From the NCBI GenBank assembly GCA_034003325.1, contig JAVEYW010000002.1, forward strand, positions 124,001 through 188,000: DNA of 64,000 nucleotides, written 5' to 3'. This document shows positions 4,656-22,003 of the stretch, one piece after another (the stretch's first letter is position 1; each line of letters starts with the position of its first letter). Below the pieces are notes generated by a model that had not been told where the DNA came from, did not search any database, and saw only the letters and a list, made by a program, of their open reading frames with translations. The translations under genes and the position numbers were made by a program. Origin of the DNA: Desulfobacterales bacterium (lineage in GTDB: Bacteria > Desulfobacterota > Desulfobacteria > Desulfobacterales > JAFDDL01).

Positions 4656-5804
4656 TTATTTTCTGCCGGCGTATTCCATATAGGTCATGGCCACGGTTCG
4701 GTAAACCAGGTGCGCCAATTTAGAAAACGGCGTATAGGCGAACAGACTCCAGACAAAAATCAGATGCAAAAAATACACGATTGCGGACAGATCGTAAAGA
4801 CCGCCTAGTCGGAGCATTTCCGTGAGCATACCGGTGACGCCCAACCCCAGCACCAGTCCCACCAGCGACCAGTCCCAATAGCTGTTAACGCTTTTCGTGT
4901 TTGCAAGGCGGTTTTTCAGCAGCAAAAAGCCGCCGATCACGAGTGCGATACCCGCCACGTTCGCCAGCCACTTGATGGGATTGATCTGGCTGTAAGGCCC
5001 ATCAATGTGAAAGATCCATTCGGCCGCAAAAAAGCAACCCGTAACGATAAACAGGCCGATAAAGCCAAAGAGCACCATCATGTGAGCCGTTGAACGCTCT
5101 ACATTTTCCGTACACTCGTTAAATTTTTTATGGGTTGCGATCGTTGGCAGAATACGAAGGAAGGCTTGCCCGAACCCTTTCGGATCGATGGTTTCTTTAT
5201 CCGTTTTTCCTTCCGCCAGGGCATTGGCATGAATATCCGCCAAAAACCGCTTAAGGCCAAGGGCAAAAACAACGATCGCCGCCATAAAGGTGGGCACCAT
5301 AATGATATCCACCAGCAAATTGCCGATATAATCGGCCTGCCAGAGATGATCGCCAGTAGGCGCAAAATTGAGCCAATCCACGCCGAACATCTTAAGAATC
5401 AACCCGACCACGAGAATAATCACCGCCGGTATAGCCAGCAGAATCGGCAGCTTTTTAGGATCCTGTACCGCTTTGGCGATCACCTTCGGCGTTGCATAGT
5501 CCGAAACAGCATATGCCCGCACGGCCGCCAGCACATCACCCGGTTTAGCCCCTCGGGGGCAACGCGTGGTGCAATCCCCACAATTATGGCACAGCCAAAT
5601 GTCCGCATTACCGATCAGTTTGTCCTTTAATCCCCAGGCTGTGGCGATCATTTCTTTTCTGGGAAACGGCTTGTTTTCCGGCGAAATGGGGCACGCCACG
5701 GAGCAGGTCGCACACTGAAAACATTTTTTCACGTCCGCCCCGCCCAGCCGGATCACATCCTGAATAAAACTGATATCAGGATCCGCAAGGTATCTCTCCG
5801 CCAT
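4656..5804 (-). CDS. qmoC: Quinone-interacting membrane-bound oxidoreductase subunit QmoC
   Basis: QmoC is the membrane subunit that takes electrons from menaquinol and passes them through QmoAB to APS reductase. The 382-aa protein resembles an HdrC-HdrE fusion. The N-terminal iron-sulfur part has two 4Fe-4S motifs, CFQCATCSVACP (Cys28, 31, 34, 38) and CHNCGDCTTRCP (~83-94). The rest is a NarI-like membrane domain with about six hydrophobic segments from residue ~120 on and several His residues that could bind haem b. It is the last gene of the aprBA-qmoABC series, 58 bp after qmoB, and ends in the hairpin at 4597-4633. Confidence 0.95.
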   Translation of the reverse strand: MAERYLADPDISFIQDVIRLGGADVKKCFQCATCSVACPISPENKPFPRKEMIATAWGLKDKLIGNADIWLCHNCGDCTTRCPRGAKPGDVLAAVRAYAVSDYATPKVIAKAVQDPKKLPILLAIPAVIILVVGLILKMFGVDWLNFAPTGDHLWQADYIGNLLVDIIMVPTFMAAIVVFALGLKRFLADIHANALAEGKTDKETIDPKGFGQAFLRILPTIATHKKFNECTENVERSTAHMMVLFGFIGLFIVTGCFFAAEWIFHIDGPYSQINPIKWLANVAGIALVIGGFLLLKNRLANTKSVNSYWDWSLVGLVLGLGVTGMLTEMLRLGGLYDLSAIVYFLHLIFVWSLFAYTPFSKLAHLVYRTVAMTYMEYAGRK

Positions 5805-17714: not shown

Positions 17715-18275
17715 ATGTGGCGAACCGTTTCTGAAAACCCGCATCATGAACTTTTTATGAGAAAAGCGCTGGTTGAAGCGCAAACCGCTCTTCTGGCCGG
17801 AGAGTTTCCGGTTGGCTGTGTGTTGGTCTGTGAGGATCGGGTGGTTGCTTCAGGCGCGCGAAAAGGCACCGCCTCACATGCGCCCAATGAAACCGATCAC
17901 GCGGAAATATTGGCACTTAACCGCCTGAGCCGACGAAAGCCGGCTATCGACACAAGGCGTATCACGGCCTACTGCACACTTGAACCCTGCCTGATGTGCT
18001 ACGGCGCACTTCTTATCTCGGGCATCTCCCATATCGTTTATGCATACGAGGATGCGATGGGCGGCGGCACGCGATGTGATTTGGACGCCATGCCCCCTTT
18101 GTATCGGAAAGCCGCCATCTCGCTGATTCCCCATGTGCTGCGCCATGAAAGCCTGTTGTTGTTTAAAGCCTATTTTGAAAACCCTGCCAACGGTTATCTG
18201 AAAAACACCTTTCTGGCCGAGTATACCCTTGCCCAACCGTCTGCTATTCCCGCCGCTGTTACACCGAATACGTAA
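17715..18275 (+). CDS. Nucleoside deaminase (TadA-like)
   Basis: This 186-aa cytidine/deoxycytidylate-deaminase-fold protein has the zinc-site motifs of tRNA-adenosine deaminase TadA: DHAEILALNRL (~residues 75-85) and TLEPCLMCYGALL (~101-113). The catalytic Glu of HAE and both Cys ligands are present. The segment GGGTRCDLDAMPPLYRK and the C-terminus differ from typical TadA, so a deaminase acting on a free nucleoside or base is possible. It begins 3 bp after the HsdR-N-like gene and ends 19 bp before the MITE-like element. Confidence 0.75.
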   Translation: MWRTVSENPHHELFMRKALVEAQTALLAGEFPVGCVLVCEDRVVASGARKGTASHAPNETDHAEILALNRLSRRKPAIDTRRITAYCTLEPCLMCYGALLISGISHIVYAYEDAMGGGTRCDLDAMPPLYRKAAISLIPHVLRHESLLLFKAYFENPANGYLKNTFLAEYTLAQPSAIPAAVTPNT

Positions 18276-18293
18276 CGCCATCGATACCGCCCC

Positions 18294-18476
18294 GCGTTAT
18301 CCCCAGGGCAATCGCATGTAACCCATAGCCCGCTTCAGCCTTGAGAAAAATCGGATTCCAGCTGCGGCAAACTCACGCGGAACGCGTTCAAACAGTGCCG
18401 CAGCTTCCATCCGATCCCCCTCAAGGCTTTCGCTCCCAGCTGTTCATTTCTACATAGATTGCCCTGGCGTTATCCC
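18294..18476. mobile_element. MITE-like element: long imperfect hairpin flanked by 10-bp direct repeats
   Basis: The element at 18304-18466 (163 bp) has perfect 10-bp terminal inverted repeats, CAGGGCAATC and GATTGCCCTG, extended inward by ATGTA / TACAT. Three inner paired blocks follow: CCTTGAG (18339) with CTCAAGG (18420), ATCGGAT with ATCCGAT, and AGCTGCGGCA (18360) with TGCCGCAGCT (18396). An apical ACGCG-gaa-CGCGT hairpin closes the structure. The sequence GCGTTATCCC occurs once on each side (18294-18303 and 18467-18476), as expected of a 10-bp target-site duplication. No transposase is encoded. I infer a miniature inverted-repeat element; a structured RNA or the remains of a gene are alternatives. 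Confidence 0.6.
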
Positions 18477-18485
18477 GAATATCGG

Positions 18486-18514
18486 TTGACTTTTTGTTAC
18501 GGTTCAATTAATTT
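18486..18514 (+). promoter_or_regulatory. Predicted promoter of the formate dehydrogenase gene
   Basis: TTGACT (18486-18491) and TAATTT (18509-18514) are 17 bp apart, directly upstream of the ModE-type operator. I saw no sigma54 (GG-N10-GC) motif in the interval. Confidence 0.45.
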
Positions 18515-18520
18515 TTCTCT

Positions 18521-18546
18521 TCGTTATGACGTTATTGTCATAACGA
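18521..18546. promoter_or_regulatory. ModE-type operator upstream of the formate dehydrogenase
   Basis: TCGTTATGAC and GTCATAACGA form a perfect 10-bp inverted repeat with a 6-bp centre. The half-sites CGTTAT and ATAACG are 12 bp apart, which matches the E. coli modA operator as I remember it. The site would cover the transcription start predicted from the promoter at 18486-18514, a position suited to repression. A ModE-like regulator is encoded directly after the formate dehydrogenase. Confidence 0.65.
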
Positions 18547-18671
18547 GATGCCCCTGATTCCGCTGCGCGGGAAACTCTAATGGCAACGGAGGCAACTCAC
18601 GGGCATGGCCGGCTTTATAAAAAATTGTTGTTCGATGAACATTCATTGGAAAAAAACAGGAGGGTGTGGGC

Positions 18672-21446
18672 ATGGCGGCAGGAGAGATGATTATCAACGG
18701 CGCGTCGTATCGGGTTAGCGCGAATCAGACCATTCTCGATGTGGCAACGGAAAACGGTATTCGGATTCCGACCTTGTGCCATTTGAAAGGCGCTTCTTCC
18801 ACCGGCACCTGCGGCATCTGTGTGGTGGCGGTTGAGGACCGCGCGGAGCTGGTACCCGCATGTACGACGCCTGCCGCCAATAACATGGTCGTCCTGACGG
18901 AATCGAAACGGGTGGTGGCGGCAAGAAAACAGACTTTATCCAGATTACTCTCCTCCGGCAATCACAACTGTGCCATCGGCTCATCTGCGGAGAAGGACTG
19001 GGCGGCGTTCCAGGTGAGCACGTTTTCAAATGAGGGCGAGGAGGCCCTTTGTCCTGCCTGGGGAGACTGTCGGCTTCAGGACTTGGCCTATCAATACCAG
19101 GTGGCGGGTGGCATCGGCAGAAAAGGCGATCCGCTTTCCTTTCCCCGACCGGTAACGAATATTCCCATGATTGTGCGCGATTTTTCCCGATGCATTCGCT
19201 GTGGTCGCTGCGTCAAGGCGTGCAATGAAATTCAGGTGAATGGCGCTATCCGGTTTGATTTTCCAGACATAGATACGGACGGCGCCTTTTCAGGAGAATA
19301 CCCTGCTGTCGATGAGAACTGTGTGTATTGCGGGGAGTGTGTTCAGGCTTGCCCGGTCGGCGCCCTGGTGGATAAAAAAGCCCGTTATCAACTTCGAACG
19401 CTCGAAACCCAAACCATCCGCACCACCTGCCCGTATTGCGGAGTGGGCTGCCAGCAGTTACTCCATGTCCGTGAGGGGAAAATCGTGAAAGTCACCGGTG
19501 TCGAGGACGCGCAGCCGAACAAGGGCCGACTGTGTGTCAAGGGGCGTTTCGGATATGATTTCATTTATTCACCCGAACGCCTCACCGATCCACTGATCAA
19601 GGACAACGGCGTGTTTCGAAAGGCCTCCTGGGATGAAGCCCTCGATCTGGTTGCCAACACCATTAAAAAGATCATCGCGGAAGACGGTCCGTCGGCTGTG
19701 GCCGGCGTTAGCTGTGCCAGAAGCATCAACGAAGATTCCTATCAAATGCAAAAATTGTTTCGATCGGTGTTCAAGACCAATAATATCGATCATTGCGCCC
19801 GTACCTGACATGCCCCCACAGTCGCCGGTCTGGCGACATCTTTCGGTTCGGGTGCCATGACCAATTCCTTTGATGAATTTCAAAAAGCCCGAATGTTCCT
19901 GGTGATTGGGTCAAACATGACCGAGGCGCATCCGGTGGCCGCGACCTTTCTTAAAAATGCGGTTCGATCCGGTGCCAAACTGATTCTAGTCGATCCGAGA
20001 AAGCACCGGTTGGCGGACTACGCCGACATTCACGTACCAATCAAGGTCGGCAGCGACATCGCCTTTTTAAACGGGGTGATGCATGTCCTGATAGCAGAGG
20101 ATCTTTACGATAAAGCCTTTGTCGCAGCGCACACACAAGGGTTTGAACCACTAAGGGAAAAGGTCCTGGAATTTCCGCCCGAACGTGCTGCGAATATCGC
20201 TGGTATTGATCCGGCGGTCATTTATGAGGTGGCCCGTTTGCTTGCGAAAGTCAAACCGGCCATGCTGTGTTACACCCTTGGCATCACCGAGCACACCTGC
20301 GGCAGAAACAATGTCATGTCCACGGCCAATCTTCAGATGCTTCTGGGGAATATGGGCATGGCCTGCGGCGGCGTGAATCCCCTTCGCGGGCAAAACAATG
20401 TTCAGGGAGCCTGCGACATGGGCGCATTGCCCAATGTCTATCCGGGCTATCAACCGGTGACAGACCCCAAAGCAAAGGAAAAATTTGAACGCGCATGGGG
20501 GGTTGAAAATCTTTCAAACACCATCGGCCTCATGATGCCAAAAATGATGGACGGGTTGGTGTCGGGTGCGGTCCGGGGGTTTTACATCTTCGGGGAAAAT
20601 CTTGCCTGCACCGAGCCGGACATTAAAAAGGTCGAGCATGAACTCGCGTCGGCCGAGTTCCTCGTGGTGCAGGATATCTTTCTGAACGAAACCACGAAAT
20701 TTGCGGATGTGGTGCTGCCTGCGGCGGCCTGGAGTGAAAATGACGGCACCTTTGCCAGCAGTGAACGCCGGGTAAGCCGGGTGAGAACCGCCAGCCAACC
20801 GCCCGGAAACGCAAAGCCGAACTGGTGGATTTTTAGAGAAATCGCCAAAAGAATGGGGCATGAGTGGGCATCCGAAAGCGCCAGGGAAATTTGGGATAAT
20901 GAGGTCTCGGTTCTTGCACCCCCGCTTTCGGGTATCAAATATTATCGTATCGAGCACGACGGCCTTCAGTGGCCCTGTCCCGATGAAGCCCACCCGGGAA
21001 CCCGGTTTTTGCACAAGGATGGTAATTTCACTGCTGGAAAGGGAGCCTTCATCCCGGTAGACTGGACGCCGGCGGCAGAAGTTCCGGATGCCGAATACCC
21101 CATGGTACTGAGTACCGGCCGGCGCCTGTATCATTATCATACCCGTACGCAGACGGGGAGGTGCGAGGGACTCAATGATCTTCTGTCGGAGGAAACCGCC
21201 GATATTTCCCCCATGGACGCCGAAAAATACCGGATTGCCCAGGGTGAAAGAATTCGGGTTCGCTCCAGAAGGGGGGCGGTAGAGGTCAAAGCCCGCGTCA
21301 CCCAAGAAGTTCAGGCCGGTCTTGTCTGGATGGCTTTTCATTTTCGTGAGAACAACGCAAACTGGCTGACCAATCCCGCCTTTGATCCGGTCACCCTGAC
21401 GGCCGAATACAAGGCTTGTGCCGTAAGGCTTGAAAAAATCGATTAA
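18672..21446 (+). CDS. fdhA: Selenocysteine-containing formate dehydrogenase alpha subunit (in-frame UGA = Sec)
   Basis: The enzyme oxidises formate to CO2 at a Mo or W bis-MGD centre. The reading frame is continuous across one UGA at 19806-19808: the context CART-U-HAPTVAGLATSFGSGAM matches the Sec site of known formate dehydrogenases (CARV-U-HGP). With Sec379 the protein is 924 aa. Domains in order: a 2Fe-2S ferredoxin (1-80, CHLKGASSTGTCGICVV), a His-Cys3 cluster segment (NHNC...C...C, ~95-135), two 4Fe-4S motifs (CIRCGRCVKACNE, CVYCGECVQACP), the CPYCGVGC cluster of the molybdopterin domain, then the MGD-binding C-terminus (YPMVLSTGRRLYHYHTRTQTG). ATG 18672 has AGGAGGG 7 nt upstream; GTG 18666 is too close. 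No beta or gamma subunit adjoins. Confidence 0.95.
19806..19840 (+). promoter_or_regulatory. Bacterial SECIS element
   Basis: Immediately after the UGA, GTCGCC (19821-19826) pairs with GGCGAC (19832-19837) around a GGTCT loop. The GGUCU apical loop and its distance of 18 nt from the UGA match my recollection of the E. coli fdhF SECIS, the SelB-binding hairpin. This supports UGA decoding as selenocysteine rather than termination. Confidence 0.88.
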
Positions 21447-21622
21447 GCCGCTCATCTCTTGATTAGGAATTCCCAACGCCCTCTTTACCGATGATAGCGC
21501 TGCGGTCTTGTTATTTATCCGCGATCGGTTTATGTTGTGGGTAATTGCGACATATAAATCCGGGTATGCGGAACAATAGATTTAACCTTGTCAACACATG
21601 CTCATTCGTATGGCTTGCCGAT

Positions 21623-22003
21623 ATGACCCGAAAACCAACAACATTTTACACCCGCTCCAATGTCTGGATTCAAGATGCCGAAGGCAACATCGTCTTTGGA
21701 TTGGGTCGCTGCAAAATCCTGCGCGCCATCCAACGCCACGGTTCCATTCATGCTGCAGCCAAGGAGCTGAAGATCGGGTACCGGGCCATTTGGGCCAGAA
21801 TAAAGGCCACGGAAGATCGGCTCGGGGAAAAGCTGCTGATAAAAACCATCGGCGGCGCTACCGGTGGTGGTTCCCGGTTGACGCCTCTAGCGGAGACGCT
21901 ATTGTCCGAATTTGACAAGGTCCAAAAACATATCGAAAAAGAAACCGACCGCCAGCTTGAAAAGCATCTGGGGGCTTATTTGCCCTTGAATAGGAACGGA
22001 TGA
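21623..22003 (+). CDS. ModE-like winged-helix transcriptional regulator (DNA-binding domain only)
   Basis: This ~126-aa protein matches the N-terminal DNA-binding domain of the molybdate regulator ModE: GLGRCKILRAIQRHGSIHAAAKELKIGYRAIWARIKATEDRLG is the expected LysR-like helix-turn-helix, followed by the wing KTIGGATGGGSRLTPLAETLL. The molbindin (molybdate-binding) domains of full ModE are absent, so any molybdate response must come from elsewhere. It follows the molybdoenzyme gene by 176 bp and a ModE-type operator precedes that gene. The start is uncertain: ATG 21623 lacks an SD, and ATG 21566 or TTG 21545 would add 19 or 26 residues. Confidence 0.75.
   Translation: MTRKPTTFYTRSNVWIQDAEGNIVFGLGRCKILRAIQRHGSIHAAAKELKIGYRAIWARIKATEDRLGEKLLIKTIGGATGGGSRLTPLAETLLSEFDKVQKHIEKETDRQLEKHLGAYLPLNRNG

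What the first reader, a model, noticed from the sequence alone, without database searches (positions are those of the whole stretch)
18294..18476. 163-bp MITE-like element with 10-bp target duplication upstream of the formate dehydrogenase
Perfect 10-bp terminal inverted repeats (CAGGGCAATC / GATTGCCCTG), several further paired blocks along both arms, an apical hairpin, and an exact 10-bp direct repeat GCGTTATCCC on each side. No transposase is encoded. Together these are the marks of a recent non-autonomous insertion, placed just upstream of the fdhA promoter, where it may alter expression. Pieces of readable frame in the arms leave a decayed gene as an alternative.
Basis: seen in the sequence. 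Interest (0 to 1): 0.6.

Follow-up and report, generated by a model that had tools for sequence, protein, structure and literature searches.

The report
Miniature mobile element before formate dehydrogenase
A 163-base "jumping" DNA hairpin with no genes of its own, present in about 17 copies in this bacterium, landed just upstream of a formate dehydrogenase gene; it carries the end sequences of a known transposon family (ISAs1), whose enzyme presumably moved it, so it is a new example of a familiar kind of element.

Summary
Window 18304-18466 is a 163-bp MITE flanked by a perfect 10-bp target duplication (GCGTTATCCC). The same genome carries 17 copies covering at least 146 of the 163 bases (86-98% identical), plus partial ones. 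Of 16 fully delimited copies, 13 have their own 10-bp duplication with at most 2 mismatches; 0 of 240 mis-paired flank comparisons do as well. The true terminal repeat is 17 bp (CAGGGCAATCGCATGTA). The window copy has lost one base and changed another at its right end.

The repeat identifies the mobiliser. ISAs1-family insertion sequences in the same order carry it, or close variants, at both ends, encode an ISAs1 transposase (NF033564, 420-449 bits) and make 10-bp duplications. One, in a Desulfobacula MAG, matches 17/17 and 15/17. No such IS is in the assembled window genome, so movement in trans is inferred.

At least 15 other MITE families with unrelated foldback interiors carry the same 17-bp end and mostly 10-bp duplications, chiefly in Desulfobacterota and Planctomycetota. 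"Recent" is only partly right (1.8% from consensus). An effect on fdhA is undemonstrated: the element ends 199 bp before the gene and leaves a putative operator intact. New member of a known kind.

The parts
18294..18303 (.). left copy of the 10-bp target-site duplication GCGTTATCCC
18304..18466 (+). 163-bp MITE (ISAs1-type ends), foldback, no ORF
18304..18320 (+). left terminal inverted repeat, CAGGGCAATCGCATGTA (17 bp, family consensus)
18451..18466 (-). right terminal inverted repeat, reads CAGGGCAATCTATGTA: one base deleted and one changed against the family TIR
18337..18369 (+). left inner arm of the foldback
18396..18428 (+). right inner arm of the foldback (79% complementary to the left arm)
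18467..18476 (.). right copy of the 10-bp target-site duplication GCGTTATCCC

Best explanation
The element is a non-autonomous miniature transposon (MITE). SHOWN: it is a dispersed repeat of about 163 bp with 17-bp terminal inverted repeats of a type found on ISAs1-family insertion sequences, and each insertion is bracketed by a 10-bp direct repeat of the local sequence. INFERRED: an ISAs1-family DDE transposase, encoded elsewhere, binds the 17-bp ends, cuts the element out or copies it, and joins it to target strands 10 bp apart; repair of the gaps makes the 10-bp duplication. The interior is a long imperfect palindrome that encodes nothing. In this genome the element amplified to about 17 near-full copies, mostly between genes. 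The matching transposase is not in the assembled genome, so the copies are probably stranded now, or were moved by an IS since lost or unassembled. The copy upstream of fdhA is a chance intergenic landing with no demonstrated effect.
For: Copies in the own genome: 17 covering at least 146 of 163 bases at 86-98% identity, plus partial ones. Copy-specific 10-bp TSDs: 13 of 16, 6 of them perfect; control pairings never below 3 mismatches. Autonomous partners: Desulfobacula sp. LigF6_bin14 (L207 = L222, contained in named locus L182) has a 1294-bp IS with left TIR 17/17, right TIR 15/17 and TSD CCCCATTATT. Eight complete IS copies of this group have perfect 10-bp TSDs: L222, L224, L225, L226, L227, L234, L244, L250. 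Transposase identity: NF033564 ISAs1 equivalog 440.5 bits, cut-off 70; PF13808 + PF01609. TIR distribution: exact CAGGGCAATCGCAT in 64 of 291 genomes of the order, with 0 in the listed reversed-pattern controls. Same TIR with 10-bp TSD on other short elements: 16 of 32 perfect, 5 with 1-2 mismatches, 2 with a perfect 9 bp.
Against: No ISAs1 IS with this TIR was found in the 46-contig assembly. A search with the cognate transposase found none in G000 at E<=1e-30. The own genome's three PF13808 genes carry other ends or none recognisable. Transposition was not observed, and no syntenic empty site is available.
Confidence: 0.95

Rival explanations
1. The copies are kept because they work as RNA hairpins: a structured RNA, attenuator or mRNA-stability element placed before genes, with mobility only incidental.
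For: Very stable fold (z = -9.4). Copies lie mostly between genes. Two base pairs show a change on both sides.
Against: The covariation term is slightly unfavourable (+0.57) and only 2 of 49 pairs covary. No Rfam match. No terminator-like U tract in or after the element. Copies lie in both orientations relative to neighbours. Other MITEs with these ends have unrelated foldback interiors, so the palindrome is not one conserved RNA.
Confidence: 0.06
2. The element changes fdhA expression, by supplying or blocking a promoter or by insulating fdhA from read-through from the deaminase gene, and this insertion was selected.
For: It lies in the same-strand intergenic gap between the deaminase gene (ends 18275) and fdhA (starts 18666); a strong hairpin in a read-through transcript could block it.
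Against: No sigma-70-like promoter or terminator-like site found in 18250-18700. 199 bp remain between the element and fdhA, including an intact palindrome that looks like the regulator site. The family has many other landings with no common gene partner noted.
Confidence: 0.12
3. A decayed gene: the readable pieces in the arms are a gene remnant.
For: One frame on the minus strand is open across much of the element (read from the sequence). A 27-bp stretch matches a coding region in genome G010 at 26 of 27 bases.
Against: 16 copies share the same ends, length and TSD size. No ORF of 80 aa. The 27-bp match is isolated, and it is the only hit in 57 relatives.
Confidence: 0.02
4. Another transposase family (for example IS4 or IS231-like, which also make duplications of about 10 bp) moves it.
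For: Other DDE families make duplications of similar length (own knowledge). The genome holds several DDE_Tnp_1 genes.
Against: The only insertion sequences found carrying this TIR at their ends encode ISAs1 transposases. The other DDE_Tnp_1 loci in the genome show no such ends.
Confidence: 0.04

Closest known systems
ISAs1 family of insertion sequences (NF033564; L207/L222 in Desulfobacula sp. LigF6_bin14)
   Same: Terminal inverted repeat CAGGGCAATCGCATGTA (17/17 at one end, 15/17 at the other) and exact 10-bp target duplication.
   Different: The MITE has no transposase and shares only the terminal 17 bp or so with the IS; its interior is an unrelated palindrome.
Bacterial MITEs in general (definition as in PMC4133298)
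   Same: Small (about 30-300 bp), multicopy, terminal inverted repeats similar to an IS, no transposase gene, foldback, flanked by direct repeats.
   Different: Duplication is 10 bp rather than the TA often seen; the ends are ISAs1-type.
Other MITEs with the same 17-bp ends, found here in Desulfobacterota and Planctomycetota (L094, L096, L113, L135, L137, L141, L151 and others)
   Same: Same TIR, 10-bp duplication, foldback interior.
   Different: Interiors fall into 15 clusters, none related to the window element.

Membership tests
MITE | short, multicopy, dispersed | tested here: met
   17 copies over at least 146 of 163 bases, plus partial ones, in one genome
MITE | terminal inverted repeats shared with an autonomous element | tested here: met
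   17-bp TIR also on ISAs1 insertion sequences
MITE | no transposase encoded | tested here: met
   no ORF of at least 80 aa inside
MITE | target-site duplication differing from copy to copy | tested here: met
   13 of 16 copies at exactly 10 bp with at most 2 mismatches; control never below 3
MITE | mobilised in trans by the partner transposase | not testable with these tools
   needs a transposition assay
ISAs1-derived or ISAs1-mobilised element | ends match ISAs1 insertion sequences | tested here: met
   L222 17/17 and 15/17; L228 17/17 and 16/17
ISAs1-derived or ISAs1-mobilised element | TSD length equals that of the autonomous partner | tested here: met
   eight IS copies with perfect 10-bp TSD
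ISAs1-derived or ISAs1-mobilised element | interior derived from the IS by internal deletion | tested here: not met
   subterminal sequence differs from L207 beyond the TIR; so it is ISAs1-mobilised by its ends, not shown to descend from an ISAs1 IS
ISAs1-derived or ISAs1-mobilised element | cognate IS present in the same genome | tested here: not met
   no L207-type transposase in G000 at E<=1e-30; assembly of 46 contigs, 97.6% complete
structured RNA family | match to a known RNA family or covariation | tested here: not met
   no Rfam match; 2 of 49 pairs covary, covariation term +0.57

The most novel reading that the evidence does not exclude
One 17-bp end sequence, read by one ISAs1 subgroup, defines a common class of MITEs across Desulfobacterota and Planctomycetota, in which unrelated palindromes have repeatedly been captured between the same ends. 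That would suggest the foldback body itself favours transposition by this transposase.
Probability: 0.25. Interest if true: 0.45.

Novelty: new member of a known kind. Interest (0 to 1): 0.3.

Why it matters
It assigns an otherwise anonymous repeat to a mobiliser family, gives a 17-bp search key that finds many related MITEs in sulfate reducers and planctomycetes, and provides a ready system (ISAs1 transposase plus many different short substrates) for asking why MITE interiors are palindromic. For annotation it shows that the intergenic sequence before this fdhA is an insertion, not a conserved regulatory leader.

Tried and rejected
(1) Own-genome DDE_Tnp_1 and PF13808 loci as mobiliser: none shows this TIR. 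The C3 and C11 elements have other ends, CAGGGTCAGGTCAAAGT / CAGGGCTCCGTCAAAGT. (2) Isolated TIR-like sites in the own genome (C6, C13, C20, C4, C25): no transposase beside them. (3) Two IMG/VR contigs with the exact 17-mer: no second end and no further similarity, chance. (4) PLSDB plasmids: no match. (5) ORFs beside TIR hits in other genomes: ordinary genes among those read. (6) Empty-site test: fdhA does not follow the HSDR_N/deaminase pair in relatives. (7) RNA-gene reading: no Rfam hit, little covariation. (8) Literature: no paper found on ISAs1-linked MITEs in these phyla; the library lacks most subscription journals. The textbook TSD range of ISAs1 (8-10 bp) is from my own knowledge. 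(9) Notebook entry miscounts TSDs (17 + 6); the right counts are 16 perfect, 5 with 1-2 mismatches, 2 with a perfect 9 bp.

Full report
WHAT IS THERE. The sequence at 18294-18476 is as described: a 10-bp direct repeat GCGTTATCCC on both sides of a 163-bp segment that begins CAGGGCAATC and ends GATTGCCCTG. The segment folds at -73.2 kcal/mol, 9.4 standard deviations below shuffled sequence, with inner arms at 18337-18369 and 18396-18428. No ORF of 80 aa or more lies in it and no Rfam family matches.

IT IS A DISPERSED REPEAT. The window lies in a 4.62-Mb, 46-contig genome. That genome holds 17 copies covering at least 146 of the 163 bases at 86-98% identity, five partial copies and two weaker core matches. 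I delimited 16 copies and compared flanks. At exactly 10 bp, 6 are perfect, 4 have one mismatch and 3 have two. Reading L003 by eye gives a further perfect repeat if its damaged left end is allowed three extra bases. Among 240 pairings of one copy's left flank with another's right flank the smallest mismatch count was 3. Lengths other than 10 show no such agreement, apart from L013, which matches best at 8-9 bp because its right end is damaged. Most copies differ from the consensus by 1.8-5%; two (L016, L017) differ by about 12% yet keep perfect 10-bp duplications. The window copy differs by 1.8%: fairly young, not brand new. Copies are almost all between genes.

THE REAL TERMINAL REPEAT IS 17 BP. 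The family ends are CAGGGCAATCGCATGTA. The window copy appears to have 10 bp only because its right end has lost a base and changed another.

WHO MOVES IT. In a sample of the order, 64 of 291 genomes hold the 14-mer CAGGGCAATCGCAT, and every listed reversed-pattern control count is 0. Genomes rich in these ends were searched for the ISAs1-associated domain PF13808. In G274 the domain starts about 135 bp inside such an end. The element (L207, the same DNA as L222) is 1294 bp, with left TIR 17/17, right TIR 15/17 and duplication CCCCATTATT. It is contained in named locus L182, Desulfobacula sp. LigF6_bin14. Its protein is an ISAs1 transposase by NCBIfam (NF033564, 440.5 bits, cut-off 70) and carries PF13808 and PF01609. 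A search with this protein found relatives in 22 of 291 genomes. Eight complete copies end in CAGGG- or TAGGG-type relatives of the same repeat and all eight have perfect 10-bp duplications; another (L228) matches 17/17 and 16/17 at its two ends but shows no duplication. So end sequence and duplication length both point to ISAs1. Mobilisation itself is inferred. The window genome has no such transposase at E<=1e-30; its own PF13808 genes carry other ends or none recognisable.

A WIDER SET. In the fetched genome-contig loci, 32 short segments of 91-403 bp are bounded by this end and its inverted copy. Sixteen have a perfect 10-bp duplication, five have 1-2 mismatches and two have a perfect 9 bp. 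Their interiors form 15 clusters with no relation to one another or to the window element, and nearly all fold strongly. The hosts named in the record titles are chiefly Desulfobacterota and Planctomycetota, with single cases elsewhere. The window's own interior was not found in 57 relatives of the same order, apart from one isolated 27-bp match, nor in plasmids.

MECHANISM, MOST LIKELY. An ISAs1 transposase recognises the 17-bp ends and inserts the element with a 10-bp stagger. The element contributes only ends and a palindrome. With no cognate IS in the assembly, the family is probably dormant here, or depends on an IS that was lost or not assembled.

EFFECT ON THE NEIGHBOUR. The element lies between a deaminase gene (17715-18275) and a formate dehydrogenase gene starting at 18666. 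No promoter-like or terminator-like site was found in the region. A perfect palindrome at 18521-18546 lies beyond the element and is intact. I found no evidence that the insertion alters fdhA. The upstream pair (HSDR_N-like gene and deaminase) is conserved across the order, but fdhA does not follow it in the relatives examined, so the empty site cannot be compared.

RNA FUNCTION. The consensus structure is conserved mostly by descent: 2 of 49 pairs have changes on both sides and the covariation term is +0.57. This does not support selection for an RNA.

NOVELTY. The kind is known: bacterial MITEs with IS-like ends (definition in PMC4133298). My searches of the open-access library found no report of ISAs1-type MITEs in these groups, but ISfinder and subscription journals were not available. 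I class it as a new member of a known kind.

Noticed in passing
window 18666-21446: The formate dehydrogenase is one selenoprotein gene, not two ORFs: an in-frame TGA at 19806-19808 (...NNIDHCART-U-HAPTVAGL...) with a SECIS_3 match at 19803-19861 (36.5 bits, below the gathering score of 63, E 4.5e-6).
   Followed up: yes
window 18521-18546 and 21545-22003: Perfect palindrome TCGTTATGAC-GTTATT-GTCATAACGA upstream of fdhA, and a LysR-type HTH (ModE N-domain-like) gene just downstream of fdhA: possibly a molybdate/tungstate-responsive operator and regulator (the ModE reading is from memory).
   Followed up: partly
L085 (G000:C11:80000-87000) and L084 (G000:C3:1500-8500): Two 98.7%-identical own-genome elements encode a DruA domain (PF14236) fused to the N-terminal part of an ISAs1 transposase, with ends CAGGG...TCAAAGT; the C-terminal DDE part appears frameshifted.
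   Followed up: partly
L066 about 5355-5542 and L067 about 5296-5485: Two longer hairpins in the own genome share the MITE's inner core (GATTCCAGC...CAAACTCAC / TTCAAACAGTGCC...CCATC-GATC) but not its outer arms or ends; perhaps relatives that kept the core with other termini.
   Followed up: partly
L070 1501-1527 (G010): 27 bp of the MITE arm match a coding region in another genome at 26 of 27 bases; the local translation looks like an outer-membrane phospholipase A. Chance or a captured gene fragment.
   Followed up: no
L178 and L190 (Mesorhizobium alhagi; Burkholderiaceae MAG): Very strong foldback elements with the same type of ends occur outside Desulfobacterota and Planctomycetota; L190 has a perfect 10-bp duplication.
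   Followed up: no
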